A stretch of DNA of 64,000 nucleotides, taken from Balneolaceae bacterium. GTDB taxonomy: Bacteria > Bacteroidota > Rhodothermia > Balneolales > Balneolaceae. Made by a program: the position numbers and the translations under genes. The DNA is taken from assembly GCA_034521445.1 (NCBI GenBank), contig JAXHMM010000006.1, positions 1-64,000 on the forward strand, in the 5' to 3' direction. Within the stretch, counting starts at the first letter, position 1; each line of letters starts with the position of its first letter. Under the pieces are notes generated by a model, which worked only from the letters and a program-made list of their open reading frames with translations, searched no databases and was not told the DNA's origin. Shown here piece by piece: positions 46,128 to 51,492 of the stretch.

Positions 46128-47138
46128 ATGAGCAAGCAAGAGGCATCCTTCCACGCCCTGGTGGTCCGTGAACAAAACGACGGCACCTTCACGCGCTCAG
46201 TCGAGGAGCGCAGCCTGGGCGACCTCCCCGACCACGACGTGCTGGTCCGCGTGCATTACTCGGGCCTGAATTACAAAGACGGCCTCTCCGCCTCCGGCGA
46301 CAAGGGGGTCACGCAGGTCTTTCCCAATACGCCTGGCGTGGACGCCGCGGGGGTGGTGGAGGCGAGCCGCGACGAGCGGTTTTCGGAGGGCGACAGGGTG
46401 ATCGTGACCAGCTACGACCTGGGGCAGAATACACCGGGCGGCTTCGGTCAGTACATCCGTGTGCCCGGCGACTGGATCGTACCGCTGCCTGAGGGACTCA
46501 CCCTCAAGGAGAGTATGATCTACGGTTCGGCGGGATTCACCGCCGCCTACGGGGTGCACAAGATCAGGCACAACGGCACGCTTCCCGAGGACGGACCCGT
46601 GCTGGTTACCGGCGCTACCGGGGGTGTGGGCAGCTTTGCCGTAGCCTTGCTTTCCCTGGAGGGCTACCGCGTCACCGCCGTCACCGGCAAGAGCGGCCAG
46701 GGCGGGTTTCTAGAGATGCTTGGCGCAGAAGAGGTAGCCGGGCGCGAACTTGTTCAAGACACTTCCGGCAAGCCGCTGCTGTCCAGTACCTGGGCGGGAG
46801 TGGTGGATACCGTCGGGGGAGAAATGCTCGATACAGCCATCCGCCAGGCCCGGCACAACGCCACCGTAACCTGCTGCGGGAATATACTGGGAGGCGACCT
46901 CAACACCAGCATCTATCCCTTTATTCTGCGAGGAGTGAGCCTGTTGGGCATCGATTCGGGCATCTGTCTGATGCCCATGCGCAGGACCCTCTGGAACCTG
47001 ATGTCGGATAAGTGGAAGCTGCCGCAGCTGGAGGAAATGTACCGCGAGGTAGGCCTGGACGGGCTGAATGTGCAGATCGACCGCATCCTGGAAGGCGGTC
47101 AGGTGGGAAAAGTGCTGCTCAACCTGAAGGACGGCTAG
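46128..47138 (+). CDS. YhdH/YhfP family NADPH quinone/acrylyl-CoA reductase
   Basis: The product is 336 residues from 'MSKQEASFHALVVRE'; the frame opens 39 bases earlier at 46089, before the TATAAT box. It has a GroES-like N-domain ('HYSGLNYKDGLSASG', 'PGVDAAGVV') and an NADPH Rossmann domain ('VLVTGATGGVGSFAV', then 'GYRVTAVTGK'). No zinc-site residues are visible, as in the YhdH/AcuI group. E. coli AcuI reduces acryloyl-CoA, but the natural substrate here is unknown. The stop overlaps the convergent response regulator gene by four bases. Confidence 0.9.
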   Translation: MSKQEASFHALVVREQNDGTFTRSVEERSLGDLPDHDVLVRVHYSGLNYKDGLSASGDKGVTQVFPNTPGVDAAGVVEASRDERFSEGDRVIVTSYDLGQNTPGGFGQYIRVPGDWIVPLPEGLTLKESMIYGSAGFTAAYGVHKIRHNGTLPEDGPVLVTGATGGVGSFAVALLSLEGYRVTAVTGKSGQGGFLEMLGAEEVAGRELVQDTSGKPLLSSTWAGVVDTVGGEMLDTAIRQARHNATVTCCGNILGGDLNTSIYPFILRGVSLLGIDSGICLMPMRRTLWNLMSDKWKLPQLEEMYREVGLDGLNVQIDRILEGGQVGKVLLNLKDG

Positions 47139-47566
47139 GCGGTTTTGCCAAGCTGTATGCTCTCGGTACCGTTCTCGGCGCCGTAGATTTCGGTGCTGAG
47201 CGCCTTCTCAAAAGGTACGCGGAGATCGTGCAGGGTGATGGGCTTGACCAGGTAGTCGGAAAAGCCGGTCTTCTTGGCCCGCTCGTAGTTGAAGCGGTCG
47301 GAGTTCCCCGAAAGGTAGATGACAGGCACATCGGACTGCGTGCGGATCTGCTCCATGGTCTCGATGCCGTCGAGTTCACCCTTCAGCACAATGTCCATGA
47401 GTATGACGTCGGGGCTTTGCTCATGCATATGACGGATGGCGTCCTCGCCGTTGGTTGCCTTGGCCACAACCTCGTAGCCCAGTTTCTTGACCAGACGTTC
47501 CTCAACCATGGACAACAGCATGTCGTCTTCGACAATAAGTACCTTCTTTTCGCTTGCGTTCTTCAT
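47135..47566 (-). CDS. Single-domain response regulator (CheY-like)
   Basis: The 143-residue receiver has the acidic pocket Glu13-Asp14-Asp15, phospho-acceptor Asp58 ('VILMDIVLKGELDG'), Ser86 and Lys108 ('DYLVKPI'). It has no output domain; the last 20 residues are a short extension. The Asp-x-x-Leu-Lys-Gly-x-Leu-Asp-Gly pattern is typical of stress-type regulators paired with PAS kinases. No kinase gene adjoins it. A near-perfect palindrome lies about 65 bases upstream. Confidence 0.9.
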   Translation of the reverse strand: MKNASEKKVLIVEDDMLLSMVEERLVKKLGYEVVAKATNGEDAIRHMHEQSPDVILMDIVLKGELDGIETMEQIRTQSDVPVIYLSGNSDRFNYERAKKTGFSDYLVKPITLHDLRVPFEKALSTEIYGAENGTESIQLGKTA

Positions 47567-47872: not shown

Positions 47873-48895
47873 TCAGATCCTGCCTGCCATGGAATAGGCC
47901 AGCGCCTTGTGTTTCTCACGATAAGCCTCCAGGTAGGCCTTCTTCATGTCATCGGAAAGAAAGCTGTGCCGTGTCATCGACCGCACCTCCTCCTCATGGG
48001 ACAGCATGTGCCGCAACTGATTTTCCACACGGCTCTCCAGCAGTCCAATCCGCAGGCCGAAAGCGTGAAAGTCGTCGTAGGCGTAAAAACCGTTGGCCTC
48101 ATAACTCTCCGTGTAATAGTCACCCTTGAACAGCCCGTCCCTCAGGGCCAGGGGGGAATCGTCCACATGGAGCCGGGTATTGACCAGATCGTAGGCCGGA
48201 CTCAGCTTATGATCCCCCTGCCCGGTTTCTATGACCGAATAGTTCTTCAAGTGGGCATCCCCGTTGGAGAAGAGGTAGTTGAACAAAACCAGAGAAAAAA
48301 ACTTCTCCTTTTCCACCATGGCCGCCGGGAGATAAGTATCGATGAGTCCGGCCATCTCCTCATAGCTCCCCTTGTACTTGAAATCCGGACCCTCCGTTTC
48401 GGCCGTCTTGCCAGCAAGAGTTGCGAAATCTTCCGTACCGATCTTGACGCTATCTTCGCCAACGTCAAATCGCCGGGTGAGGTAGGCAGGATCCCCGTTC
48501 CTGAAAAAGATCAAGGCGCACTCGGCCGTTTCGATGCCGTATAGCTGCCGTGCGATCTGCATGGTCAGGTGTTCGTTCGCCGGAACCTGGTCTGCTTTCT
48601 GGAGATCCCTGGGTATGGGCTTCAGAATATATGTGCCCTGCTCCCCCTCCTCGGTCAGTCGAAGCCCGTCTTTATCCAGCAGCAGCGAGACCTTTTCCTG
48701 GACTCCGGAGATGGAAAGACGTTTCCTATTTTGCTGGAACTTCTCGGCATCCTCCTCGCTCACCTCGGGCGGATGGTAGGGCAGGATATGGCTCACTTTC
48801 TTTCCGCCAAACATCCTTTTCAGACAGGTGGGGCTGTAGGTGTCGAAGCCTTTCGACAGCGTGCCCGGACAATATAGAATTTCAGGAAGGCTCAT
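47873..48895 (-). CDS. hipT: HipT-like toxin, HipA-family serine/threonine kinase
   Basis: The 340-residue kinase lacks the usual HipA N-terminal subdomain, which is encoded separately just upstream. The Gly-rich loop reads 'RLSISGVQEKVSLLL' with Ser61-Ile-Ser63, matching the Ser57/Ser59 autophosphorylation pair of E. coli HipT. Lys92 ('YILKP') fits the ATP lysine. The catalytic Asp213 in 'FSNGDAHLKNYSV' and metal-binding Asp236 in 'PAYDLVN' correspond to HipT D210 and D233. HipT of E. coli phosphorylates tryptophanyl-tRNA synthetase; the target here is inferred at most. The start overlaps the hipS stop (ATGA). Confidence 0.9.
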   Translation of the reverse strand: MSLPEILYCPGTLSKGFDTYSPTCLKRMFGGKKVSHILPYHPPEVSEEDAEKFQQNRKRLSISGVQEKVSLLLDKDGLRLTEEGEQGTYILKPIPRDLQKADQVPANEHLTMQIARQLYGIETAECALIFFRNGDPAYLTRRFDVGEDSVKIGTEDFATLAGKTAETEGPDFKYKGSYEEMAGLIDTYLPAAMVEKEKFFSLVLFNYLFSNGDAHLKNYSVIETGQGDHKLSPAYDLVNTRLHVDDSPLALRDGLFKGDYYTESYEANGFYAYDDFHAFGLRIGLLESRVENQLRHMLSHEEEVRSMTRHSFLSDDMKKAYLEAYREKHKALAYSMAGRI

Positions 48896-49227
48896 GAGGC
48901 GTTGTCGCCTGCAGGTTTCACGGTCACCGCGCCTATGGTATCGAAGTGGGCCGTCGCCAGGAGAAGGTCAAAATAGTTGCGCTCGTCGATCTTCAGCTGC
49001 CTGGCCTGGAACTTCCTGTTGGCCCCCTCGGCCAGCATGTTGTAGAAAAACGGAAAGAGATGATCGGACTTGTGGATCTTCCTTGTCTTCGGCAGGGTCA
49101 GGCTAACGGGCGGCTTGCCGGGATCGCGGTACCACCGGTCGTCGTATTCAAATTCATAGGTTCCCCTGTCGTACTGCCTGAGCATACCTACCCGCGCGCC
49201 ATTGCGATATACCACGGCCATTTTCAT
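48892..49227 (-). CDS. hipS: HipS-like small protein (free HipA N-terminal subdomain)
   Basis: The 111-residue protein matches the N-terminal subdomain-1 of HipA: 'VVYRNGARVGMLRQYDRGTYEFEYDDRWY', 'PVSLTLPKTRKIHKSDHLFPFFYNMLAEG', and a helical end. In HipBST systems this free domain, HipS, is the antitoxin that neutralises HipT, while HipB boosts and represses. It is start-stop overlapped with both neighbours. Confidence 0.88.
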   Translation of the reverse strand: MKMAVVYRNGARVGMLRQYDRGTYEFEYDDRWYRDPGKPPVSLTLPKTRKIHKSDHLFPFFYNMLAEGANRKFQARQLKIDERNYFDLLLATAHFDTIGAVTVKPAGDNAS

Positions 49228-49442
49228 GAGGGCCGCCCGGGACTCTTGACACGAAGAATAAGCTCCATGCCCAGGATGTCCGCAATTTTATGGAGCACCC
49301 TGAGTGTTGGATTTGCCTGCCCCGTCTCAATTTTATAAAGCGTATTTACGCTGATGTCCGCCATCTCCGCCAGATCGGACTGCGTGATATCCAGGGTATC
49401 CCTGCGCTTTTTGATGCTATTTCCGATTTCAGAGAATGACAT
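49224..49442 (-). CDS. hipB: HipB-like XRE-family antitoxin/repressor
   Basis: The product is 72 residues from the ATG giving 'MSFSEIGNSIKKRRDTL'; longer frames cross the promoter. A Cro/C1-type helix-turn-helix is clear: 'ITQSDLAEMADISVNTLYKIETGQANPTLRVLHKIADILGMEL'. It is the first gene of hipB-hipS-hipT and should repress its own promoter through the two palindromes upstream (49494-49517 and 49559-49576). Confidence 0.92.
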   Translation of the reverse strand: MSFSEIGNSIKKRRDTLDITQSDLAEMADISVNTLYKIETGQANPTLRVLHKIADILGMELILRVKSPGRPS

Positions 49443-49484
49443 TATAGTGTGATTTTTGGCTTTCACCCAGGTCTCCGATGCCGT

Positions 49485-49493: not shown

Positions 49494-49517
49494 AATTTCA
49501 CATTTTATTGTGAAATT
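49494..49517. promoter_or_regulatory. hipB operator 1, perfect inverted repeat
   Basis: AATTTCACA (49494-49502) and TGTGAAATT (49509-49517) are perfect 9-base reverse complements around a 6-base spacer. The site lies 52 bases upstream of hipB beside a -10-like box. Size and place fit a dimeric HipB-type repressor. Confidence 0.7.
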
Positions 49518-49558: not shown

Positions 49559-49576
49559 TCACATTTTAATGGGAAA
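49559..49576. promoter_or_regulatory. hipB operator 2, imperfect copy of operator 1
   Basis: TCACATTTTAATGGGAAA agrees with TCACATTTTATTGTGAAA of operator 1 at 16 of 18 positions. It starts 61 bases further from hipB. Paired operators 60-odd bases apart would allow cooperative or looped binding, as reported for hipBA in E. coli. Confidence 0.6.
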
Positions 49577-49584
49577 ACCATTAA

Positions 49585-49621
49585 AAAACCCCTGCACGAC
49601 ACGGAGCCGGGCAGGGGTTTT
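49585..49621 (-). terminator. Intrinsic terminator of tRNA-Phe
   Basis: On the minus strand the stem AAAACCCCTGC/GCAGGGGTTTT closes a 15-base loop and is followed by a run of six T. It lies 8 bases past the 3' end of tRNA-Phe. Confidence 0.8.
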
Positions 49622-49761: not shown

Positions 49762-51492
49762 TCAGGCGAGCTGATTTTCCTCCACCTGCACGTCCTTGAG
49801 GTGGATCTGCAGACTTCGTTTGCCCCTCCAGTAGTTCTCCTCCAGCGAGTAGGCGATGTGGAGCGATTGCTGCTCCGGGGACGAATCGCGGATGACCGGC
49901 AGGTATTCGTGCAGGTTGAAGCCGATCACGTCAAACACGCCCGAACCGTTCTGGGCCACCTTCATCTTCAGGTGACCCTGTCCCACGATGGTGGGTATGC
50001 CGACCACCCGCACGTCGCGGCTCACAAAAGTGGGCTGCCGGTTGCCGGGTCCGAAGGGCTCGAATTGGCTGAGCAGTTTCCAGAAGCGCAGGTCCACGTC
50101 GCTCAGGTCGAGCTCGCTGTCAACCTCCAGCTCCGGCTTGAAATCCTCCTCACTGAGGTTGCCGGATGCGATTTCGTCGATGCGCCGGCGGAACTCATCC
50201 AGGTTTCCCTCGCGGATGGTCATACCCGCCGCGTACTCGTGTCCCCCGTACTGCTCCAGCAGGTCCTCGCACTGCTTGAGCGCCTCATAGATGTTGAACC
50301 CCTTAATGCTGCGTGCCGAGCCCTTGATCTTGCCGTCCACCGAACTGAGCATGATGGCCGGCCGGCCGTAGGCGTCCACCAGCCGGGAAGCCACAATACC
50401 GATCACCCCCAGGTGCCAGTCGGGGTCGTGCAGCACCATGGAGGATATTTTCTCGAGGTTGTACTCGCGCTCCACCTTTTCGACGGCCTCCTCCATAGTC
50501 CGGGTGTCGGTATCGCGGCGCTTCACATTAATGCTCTCCAGCTCGCGGGCCCGCTCCCGGGCCTCCACCGGGGTGTCTGAGATAAGCAATTTGACCGCCT
50601 TGGCGGCGTCGCCCATGCGACCGGCTGCGTTGATGCGCGGACCGATGGAGAAGATGATATTGGAGGTGCTCACCGATCCCGGCTTCATGTCGATCAGGTC
50701 TAGGAGCGCACGGATGCCGATGCGCGGCTCTTCGTTGATCTGCCGCAGACCCTCGTGCATCATCACCCGGTTCTCGTCCTGTATGGGCACGATGTCGGAG
50801 GCGATGGAGATGGCGACCAGGTCCAGGAACTGGTAGGCCACCTTCTCCCCCAGACCCAGTGTCTTGAGGGTGCCCTGCACCAGCTTGAAGCCCACGCCGG
50901 CACCGGATAGTGCCTTGAAAGGATAGCTGCAGTCCCTGCGTTTGGGGTCCAGCACCGCGGCGGCCTCGGGCAGCTCATCGCCCACATTATGGTGGTCGCA
51001 GATGATTAGGTCAATGCCGTGCTCGCCGGCAATGCGCGTCTCCTCCACGGCGGTGATGCCGCAGTCCACCGATACAATCAGGTCGAAGCCGTTATCGATG
51101 GCATACTGCACGCCCTCGATGTTGATGCCGTAGCCCTCCTTGTAGCGTTGCGGAATGTAGTAGTCCACGTCCACCCCAAAATCATCCAGGAAAATGTAGA
51201 GGATGGAAGTGGCGGTGGTACCGTCCACGTCGTAGTCCCCGTAAACAAGAATCTTCTCTCCCGAGCGGATGGCCCTGGCGAGGCGTTCGGTGCCGCGATC
51301 CATATCCTTCATCAGGAAGGGATCGTGCATCATCCCCAGATCGGGCCTGAAAAAGGTTTTGGCTTCTTCATAGCTGTGGATGCCCCTGAGGGCAAGCAGG
51401 CGGGCGATGGTCTGGGGTACGCCCAGATTCTCCCGGAGCTCGGAAACGGACTCCTCCCGTTCCGGCTCTTCGTAGACCCAGCGAAATGGCAT
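49762..51492 (-). CDS. recJ: Single-stranded-DNA exonuclease RecJ
   Basis: The 576-residue enzyme has DHH-domain motifs in order: 'ILVYGDYDVDGTTAT', 'YIPQRYKEGYG', 'VSVDCGI', 'IICDHHNVG' and 'GPRINAAGRMGD'. DHHA1 'YGGHEYAAGMTI' and an OB-fold end follow, with a length typical of RecJ. It degrades 5'-ended single strands during recombination and mismatch or base excision repair. It is transcribed toward tRNA-Phe. Confidence 0.95.
   Translation of the reverse strand: MPFRWVYEEPEREESVSELRENLGVPQTIARLLALRGIHSYEEAKTFFRPDLGMMHDPFLMKDMDRGTERLARAIRSGEKILVYGDYDVDGTTATSILYIFLDDFGVDVDYYIPQRYKEGYGINIEGVQYAIDNGFDLIVSVDCGITAVEETRIAGEHGIDLIICDHHNVGDELPEAAAVLDPKRRDCSYPFKALSGAGVGFKLVQGTLKTLGLGEKVAYQFLDLVAISIASDIVPIQDENRVMMHEGLRQINEEPRIGIRALLDLIDMKPGSVSTSNIIFSIGPRINAAGRMGDAAKAVKLLISDTPVEARERARELESINVKRRDTDTRTMEEAVEKVEREYNLEKISSMVLHDPDWHLGVIGIVASRLVDAYGRPAIMLSSVDGKIKGSARSIKGFNIYEALKQCEDLLEQYGGHEYAAGMTIREGNLDEFRRRIDEIASGNLSEEDFKPELEVDSELDLSDVDLRFWKLLSQFEPFGPGNRQPTFVSRDVRVVGIPTIVGQGHLKMKVAQNGSGVFDVIGFNLHEYLPVIRDSSPEQQSLHIAYSLEENYWRGKRSLQIHLKDVQVEENQLA

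What the first reader, a model, noticed from the sequence alone, without database searches (positions are those of the whole stretch)
47873..49442. Three-gene HipBST-type toxin-antitoxin unit beside tRNA-Phe
Seen: three genes joined by ATGA overlaps encode an XRE repressor, a free HipA N-terminal subdomain and a kinase lacking that subdomain. The kinase loop carries Ser61-Ile-Ser63 and catalytic Asp213/Asp236. Known: in E. coli HipBST, HipS (the free subdomain) is the antitoxin, and HipT has Ser57/Ser59, D210 and D233. Inference: this is a HipBST member in a distant phylum. The hip genes also look lower in GC than their neighbours, and the adjacent tRNA gene is a common landing site. The split is ancient rather than a recent break, because both overlaps are exact.
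Basis: partly seen in the sequence, partly recalled or inferred. Interest (0 to 1): 0.72.

Follow-up and report, generated by a model that had tools for sequence, protein, structure and literature searches.

The report
Split-kinase toxin module, evenly spaced operators
This is a three-gene bacterial toxin-and-antidote module (HipBST) from a lineage distinct from the two studied in the laboratory; its repressor's three DNA sites sit exactly 61 base pairs apart, a distance kept across several phyla even where the site sequence has changed.

Summary
HipB (49224-49442), HipS (48892-49227) and HipT (47873-48895), minus strand, are joined by ATGA overlaps; S61-I-S63, D213 and D236 are present. It is a HipBST-type toxin-antitoxin module in a Balneolaceae genome. 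HipBST was already reported in the FCB superphylum (PMC10653801), so its presence there is not new. The kinase lies in a supported clade (100/98), mostly Bacteroidota, apart from both characterised HipTs. That clade keeps SxS (80/81 representatives), lacks the second Arg of RxDR (81/81), and its HipS lacks the Trp65 wedge (81/81).

In clade relatives 61 bp dominates (83 of 116 adjacent-site distances; 105 at 60-62); the Legionella-like clade keeps about 71, a third clade 40-41. Operator sequence switches with the HipB recognition helix (54:0 versus 0:17) but spacing does not.

The site is empty (RecJ, tRNA-Phe, response regulator) in four relatives, so the module is a local insertion, without att repeat or integrase. 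Toxicity, neutralisation and target are inferred.

The parts
49224..49442 (-). hipB: 72-aa XRE/Cro-type repressor, recognition helix VNTLYKIE; ATG at 49442
   Evidence: HTH_3 3.7e-15; TIGR03070 couple_hipB 1.2e-15, below its cut-off; helix-operator covariation
48892..49227 (-). hipS: 111-aa free HipA N-subdomain 1, predicted antitoxin
   Evidence: Couple_hipA 1.2e-21; best solved relative HipS_Lp 3.3e-14
47873..48895 (-). hipT: 340-aa HipA-like Ser/Thr kinase lacking N-subdomain 1, predicted toxin
   Evidence: HipA_C 1e-39; HipT_Lp 2e-28, HipT_Ec 2.7e-17; Foldseek top 11 PDB hits all HipT
49224..49227 (-). 4-nt ATGA overlap hipB/hipS
   Evidence: sequence
48892..48895 (-). 4-nt ATGA overlap hipS/hipT
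   Evidence: sequence
48707..48715 (-). codons of Ser61-Ile-Ser63, Gly-rich loop, candidate autophosphorylation sites
   Evidence: SxS in 80 of 81 clade representatives, partly because SISGVQEK was one of two search patterns
48461..48463 (-). codon of Val145, in place of the second Arg of the RxDR motif that holds the phosphoserine in HipT_Lp
   Evidence: Arg absent in 81 of 81 clade D representatives, present in 16/16 of clade B and 31/34 of clade C
48257..48259 (-). codon of catalytic Asp213
48188..48190 (-). codon of metal-binding Asp236
49018..49023 (-). codons of HipS Ala69-Asn70, at the place of the HipS_Ec Trp65 wedge
   Evidence: Asn at the second position in 81/81 clade D representatives; Trp at the first in 34/34 of clade C
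49437..49452 (-). operator O1 TCACACTATAATGTCA, overlapping the hipB start codon
   Evidence: direct-repeat family D2
49498..49513 (-). operator O2 TCACAATAAAATGTGA, 61 bp from O1
49559..49574 (-). operator O3 TCCCATTAAAATGTGA, 61 bp from O2
49585..49621 (-). terminator-like hairpin after tRNA-Phe; the module begins just beyond it
   Evidence: inverted repeat I4; hairpin-plus-T sequences also follow the tRNA in empty sites L139, L141, L148
49628..49701 (-). tRNA-Phe(GAA), one flank of the insertion site (context)
49762..51492 (-). recJ, conserved neighbour upstream of tRNA-Phe (context)
   Evidence: tRNA-Phe lies beside recJ in 28 of 30 loci, the window's own included
47135..47566 (-). response regulator, other flank of the insertion site (context)
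   Evidence: next to tRNA-Phe with 168-320 bp between in L139, L141, L143, L148

Best explanation
A HipBST toxin-antitoxin module of a distinct clade (here 'clade D'). [quoted passage not shown] target unknown). HipS, the detached N-subdomain 1, is the antitoxin: it caps HipT and holds its Gly-rich loop out of the ATP site (inferred from the HipST_Lp and HipBST_Ec structures), but with a small Ala/Val-Asn motif instead of the Trp65 wedge. HipB binds three palindromic operators at about -132, -71 and -10 from its start codon, the nearest covering the start codon, and represses the operon (binding inferred from covariation). That the 61-bp spacing is conserved while operator sequence changes is shown; that it reflects contact between HipB-HipT(-HipS) complexes on neighbouring sites is inferred. 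The module entered between tRNA-Phe and a response-regulator gene in this lineage.
For: Gene order, domains and catalytic residues. Clade support 100/98 with no fused member; 80 of 80 species-genome relatives split. Foldseek: top 11 PDB hits all HipT (from a weak model). Operators: the window's three-site score is 39 against at most 29 in 8 shuffles; 40 of 93 clade loci are significant against 100 dinucleotide shuffles each, 38 of them at exactly 61 bp; a motif scan that assumes no spacing gives 61 (83), 62 (15), 60 (7), all other distances together 11. HipB helix versus operator class 54:0 / 0:17, Fisher 1e-16, at least 10 helix changes on the HipT tree. O1 never has TGA after the ATG in 52 loci, though a perfect palindrome would put that stop there. 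Empty site in four relatives. Legionella HipB binds three evenly spaced operators with 53-bp gaps, i.e. 71 bp start to start (PMC10653801), which is the spacing found here for Legionella-like loci.
Against: No experiment on any clade D member was found. Trp65 and the second Arg of RxDR are missing, so details of neutralisation and autophosphorylation in E. coli or Legionella may not carry over. About half of the clade loci do not reach significance for three sites; many show only two. The Fisher value ignores relatedness; only 2 independent helix switches rest on well-supported branches. The monomer model is weak (pLDDT 65.6) and the HipS-HipT complex could not be modelled.
Confidence: 0.87

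Rival explanations
1. HipB, not HipS, is the main antitoxin: HipS is only a lid or constitutive subunit, so HipS-HipT together act like HipA and are held by HipB.
For: HipST_Lp superposes on HipA (PMC10653801); the Trp65 wedge that makes HipS_Ec an antitoxin is absent here; HipB is always linked.
Against: Both characterised HipBST systems, including Legionella HipS that also lacks Trp65, use HipS as antitoxin while HipB does not neutralise on its own (PMC10653801, PMC9325769, PMC6581861). An intact clade D hipS without its own hipB or hipT exists in L133, as expected of a free antidote.
Confidence: 0.1
2. A recently split (frameshifted) copy of a canonical HipBA module.
For: HipS plus HipT together equal HipA in length; the genome also holds two unsplit hipBA loci.
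Against: All 80 species-genome relatives are split; the clade lies away from every fused HipA sampled; the kinase is closer to HipT than to HipA.
Confidence: 0.02
3. A decayed or repurposed regulator locus without toxin activity.
For: No functional data for this clade; the P-loop partner Arg is lost.
Against: Intact frames, complete catalytic residues and an intact operator array; clade-wide conservation (22 invariant HipT columns in 61 sequences); carriage on conjugative and other plasmids.
Confidence: 0.04
4. The evenly spaced palindromes are inherited rather than selected, or serve another regulator.
For: Spacer identity is above the composition expectation (0.41 against 0.325), so some common descent or shared promoter elements remain.
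Against: Spacing stays at 61 while operator sequence changes in step with the HipB recognition helix; other HipBST clades have other constant spacings (40-41, 71-72) with other motifs.
Confidence: 0.08

Closest known systems
HipBST of Legionella pneumophila (lpg2368-2370; PMC10653801, PMC9325769)
   Same: Three genes with 4-nt overlaps, HipS free; best sequence match to HipT and HipS; HipS without the Trp wedge; three evenly spaced operators upstream of hipB.
   Different: Gly-rich loop SIS here, SVQ there; RFDV here, RxDR there; operator spacing 61 here, 71 there; different operator sequence; separate clade. O1 overlaps the start codon here, lies 24 nt upstream there.
HipBST of E. coli O127:H6 (PMC6581861, PMC10627512)
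   Same: Gene order, split HipA, SIS loop with two serines, catalytic Asp pair.
   Different: Trp65 of HipS absent, second Arg of RxDR absent, about 23% identity to HipT_Ec in the Foldseek alignment; separate clade. Lin et al. report that the Legionella operator motifs are absent upstream of hipBST_Ec.
HipBST of a third clade (TxP/AxT loop; L002 in the same genome, widespread in Bacteroidota)
   Same: Same three-gene order; three evenly spaced operators.
   Different: HipS carries Trp at the wedge place in 34/34; RxDR kept in 31/34; spacing 40-41; operator TATACCC...GGTATA.
HipBA of E. coli K-12
   Same: Kinase core and HipB-type repressor; several operators.
   Different: HipA is one chain; four TATCC(N8)GGATA operators at uneven 28, 39 and 28 bp.

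Membership tests
HipBST (tripartite split-HipA toxin-antitoxin) | hipB-hipS-hipT order in one apparent operon | tested here: met
HipBST (tripartite split-HipA toxin-antitoxin) | HipT lacks N-subdomain 1 but keeps Gly-rich loop, catalytic and Mg-binding motifs | tested here: met
HipBST (tripartite split-HipA toxin-antitoxin) | HipS is the free N-subdomain 1 | tested here: met
HipBST (tripartite split-HipA toxin-antitoxin) | kinase groups with HipT rather than HipA | tested here: inconclusive
   Clade D is supported and holds no fused protein, but the deep order among HipT_Ec, HipT_Lp, clade D and HipA_Ec is unresolved and long branches meet
HipBST (tripartite split-HipA toxin-antitoxin) | HipS neutralises HipT; HipB does not on its own | not testable with these tools
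   needs expression assays
HipBST_Ec subgroup | SxS Gly-rich loop | tested here: met
   S61-I-S63
HipBST_Ec subgroup | Trp65 wedge in HipS | tested here: not met
   Ala69-Asn70 at that place
HipBST_Ec subgroup | HipT phosphorylates tryptophanyl-tRNA synthetase | not testable with these tools
   needs a kinase or phosphoproteome assay
HipBST_Lp subgroup | SxQ loop and RxDR phosphoserine pocket | tested here: not met
   SIS and RFDV
HipBST_Lp subgroup | three evenly spaced operators, 71 bp start to start | tested here: not met
   three evenly spaced sites, but 61 bp
HipBA (canonical) | single-chain HipA of about 400-450 aa | tested here: not met
   two separate frames here and in 80/80 species-genome relatives
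tRNA-integrated genomic island | duplicated tRNA 3' end (att) and integrase | tested here: not met
   no second copy, best other match 6 of 20 mismatched; no integrase among the flanking genes examined

The most novel reading that the evidence does not exclude
HipBST modules carry a geometric ruler: the spacing of three HipB operators is a constant of each HipT clade (40-41, 60-62, 71-72 bp), all at nearly the same helical phase (about 0.7-0.9 of a turn at 10.5 bp per turn), and is kept while the operator sequence changes with the HipB recognition helix, because repressor complexes loaded with HipT (and HipS) touch along one face of the DNA. The toxin-to-antidote ratio would then be read out as array assembly.
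Probability: 0.45. Interest if true: 0.68.

Novelty: new variant of a known kind. Interest (0 to 1): 0.52.

Why it matters
Only HipBST systems of Gammaproteobacteria (E. coli and close kin, Legionella) were found characterised in the papers read here. The constant operator spacing gives a quantitative prediction about how a toxin-loaded repressor assembles on DNA, and the helix-to-operator switch is a natural series for HipB recognition. One genome holds three HipBST clades and two HipBA loci, a useful case for how such modules stay insulated from one another.

Tried and rejected
tRNA-Phe as integration site: no att duplication, no integrase, other copies examined not at tRNA-Phe. Phage carriage: no match in 50,697 phage records and only 3 relatives in IMG/VR, so not a typical phage gene. 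Search for a fused ancestor: two 403-aa single-chain HipAs with an SLSGVQPK loop (L124, L125) looked promising but fall with other fused HipAs, on long branches, not with clade D. The count 'split 81/81' is not used as evidence, because the modules in that set had been filtered for short kinases; one search has no such filter. A plasmid record of Legionella adelaidensis annotated as a Dot/Icm effector was left unfetched; the Legionella reference used in the tree is the stretch printed by the PDB search. Papers: no description of 61- or 40-bp HipB operator arrays was found in the open library, but the supplementary tables of PMC10653801 and PMC8262856 could not be read, so clade D sequences may already be listed there.

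Full report
OBSERVATION. The three genes lie as described, all on the minus strand: hipB 49224-49442, hipS 48892-49227, hipT 47873-48895, with two ATGA overlaps. Pfam gives HTH_3, Couple_hipA and HipA_C. S61-I-S63, D213 and D236 are present and align with the known kinases. By sequence the kinase is closest to HipT of Legionella (2e-28), then HipT of E. coli O127 (2.7e-17), and only weakly to HipA (best 1.6e-7 for Shewanella, 2e-5 for E. coli); HipS is likewise closest to HipS_Lp (3.3e-14). A weak AlphaFold model (pLDDT 65.6) still finds HipT structures as its 11 best PDB matches.

WHERE IT IS. The closest named relatives are Balneolaceae MAGs; two of their contigs have the length and match of contigs in genomes G058 and G028, which the whole-genome tool calls 'same family'. 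The window is therefore from a Balneolaceae genome (inference). That genome holds three split hip modules (the window; C3:35556; C5:556140) and two unsplit hipBA loci (C3:564599; C6:608368).

RELATIVES. Relatives also sit on plasmids, including a conjugative plasmid of Runella and a plasmid of Bacteroides thetaiotaomicron, where the annotation reads 'HipA domain-containing' and 'HipA N-terminal domain-containing' proteins. In all 80, hipS and a short hipT are separate genes. The 4-nt overlaps are common but not universal, so it is the phylogeny and not the overlaps that shows the split to be old.

TREE. A 59-kinase tree separates the window's clade ('D', 100/98) from a clade with HipT_Lp ('B', 100/100), a clade with a TxP-type loop ('C') and HipT_Ec with an Aliivibrio protein (100/100). 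Deep order is unresolved and several fused HipA branches are long. In a later fast tree with more B and C members some memberships of B and C had low support; grouping there was completed by the HipS motif.

SIGNATURES (representatives after removing near-copies). D: SxS 80/81; second Arg of RxDR absent 81/81; HipS has Asn two residues after Glu-Gly in 81/81 and no Trp. B: SxQ or SxA mostly, RxDR 16/16. C: Trp in HipS 34/34, RxDR 31/34. In HipT_Lp the RxDR arginines hold the phosphoserine, and in HipS_Ec Trp65 is the inhibitory wedge (PMC10627512). SxS in D is partly a search effect, because SISGVQEK was one of two scan patterns, but members found without it share it.

OPERATORS. A repeat search showed three palindrome-like sites upstream of hipB at exact 61-bp steps. 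A search for any three equally spaced similar 16-mers, judged against dinucleotide shuffles, was significant in 40 of 93 D loci, 38 of them at exactly 61 (frequency of 61 in shuffles 0.011). With near-copies removed: D 41 significant of 79, 36 at 61 and 39 at 60-62; C 19 of 33, all 40 or 41; B 9 of 16, eight at 71-73 and one at 61. A motif scan of D with no spacing assumed gave 61 (83), 62 (15), 60 (7), and 11 others in all. The 71 of clade B equals the published Legionella array (18-nt sites, 53-bp gaps; PMC10653801). Within D the operator is TCACA...TGTGA when the HipB recognition helix is NTLY-like and GTGC...GCAC when it is LRTL-like (54:0 and 0:17), with at least 10 helix changes on the HipT tree (only 2 independent pairs rest on strongly supported branches). 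Spacing is 61 in both classes. O1 covers the start codon; a perfect palindrome would create ATG-TGA, and in 52 such loci codon 2 is never TGA but mostly TTA, TTG or TCA; in the other class it is CAC in 12 of 14, giving Met-His. Together these make it likely that the sites are HipB operators, and show that spacing is conserved more tightly than sequence. Spacers are still somewhat alike (0.41 against 0.325 expected), so shared ancestry contributes. At 10.5 bp per turn, 40-41, 61 and 71-72 fall at phases 0.76-0.90, which suggests but does not prove contact between neighbouring complexes. E. coli K-12 hipBA, by contrast, has four sites at 28, 39 and 28 bp.

INSERTION SITE. tRNA-Phe lies beside recJ in 28 of 30 loci examined, the window's own included. 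In four relatives (L139, L141, L143, L148) tRNA-Phe is followed directly by the same response regulator with 168-320 bp between, against 2,061 bp in the window: an empty site. No repeat of the tRNA end is present (best other match 6 of 20 mismatched), and other clade D copies examined are not at tRNA-Phe. The module thus arrived in this lineage between tRNA and response regulator by an unknown route.

MECHANISM. Shown here: gene order, conserved catalytic residues, operator array, helix-operator covariation, empty site. Inferred from E. [quoted passage not shown] Unknown: the target (TrpS in E. coli; not identified in Legionella), and what replaces the Trp wedge and the phosphoserine clamp.

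KNOWN OR NEW. HipBST, its presence in the FCB superphylum, and three evenly spaced operators in Legionella are published. I found no report of the D-clade signatures or of clade-constant spacings of 61 and 40-41 bp, within an open-access library and without supplementary tables. I rate it a new variant of a known kind.

Noticed in passing
L133:5903-6241 (G067:C28): An intact clade D hipS (112 aa) with no hipB or hipT of its clade beside it, lying just upstream of a clade C hipBST; a candidate orphan antidote.
   Followed up: partly
L121:2432-4539 (Aliivibrio fischeri plasmid pCG103-32): hipB-hipS followed by two successive HipT-like kinases; the second has a different Gly-rich loop (KISPTGQQHK).
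   Followed up: no
L132 (G019:C10:122000-140000): A clade D and a clade C hipBST lie within about 3 kb of each other on one contig; G019 carries two modules of each kind.
   Followed up: partly
L124, L125 (G139, G144): Single-chain 403-aa HipAs with a two-serine loop (SLSGVQPK), otherwise a HipT feature.
   Followed up: partly
L228 (G184:C11): A clade B module whose operators are spaced 61 instead of 71 bp: one helical turn shorter, possibly a natural spacing switch.
   Followed up: no
L046:5144-5550 and L016:661-746: In Belliella alkalica the clade D module lies about 120 bp from the tmRNA gene; in L016 hipB lies about 145 bp from a tRNA-Leu. Proximity to tRNA-like genes recurs now and then but is not general.
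   Followed up: partly
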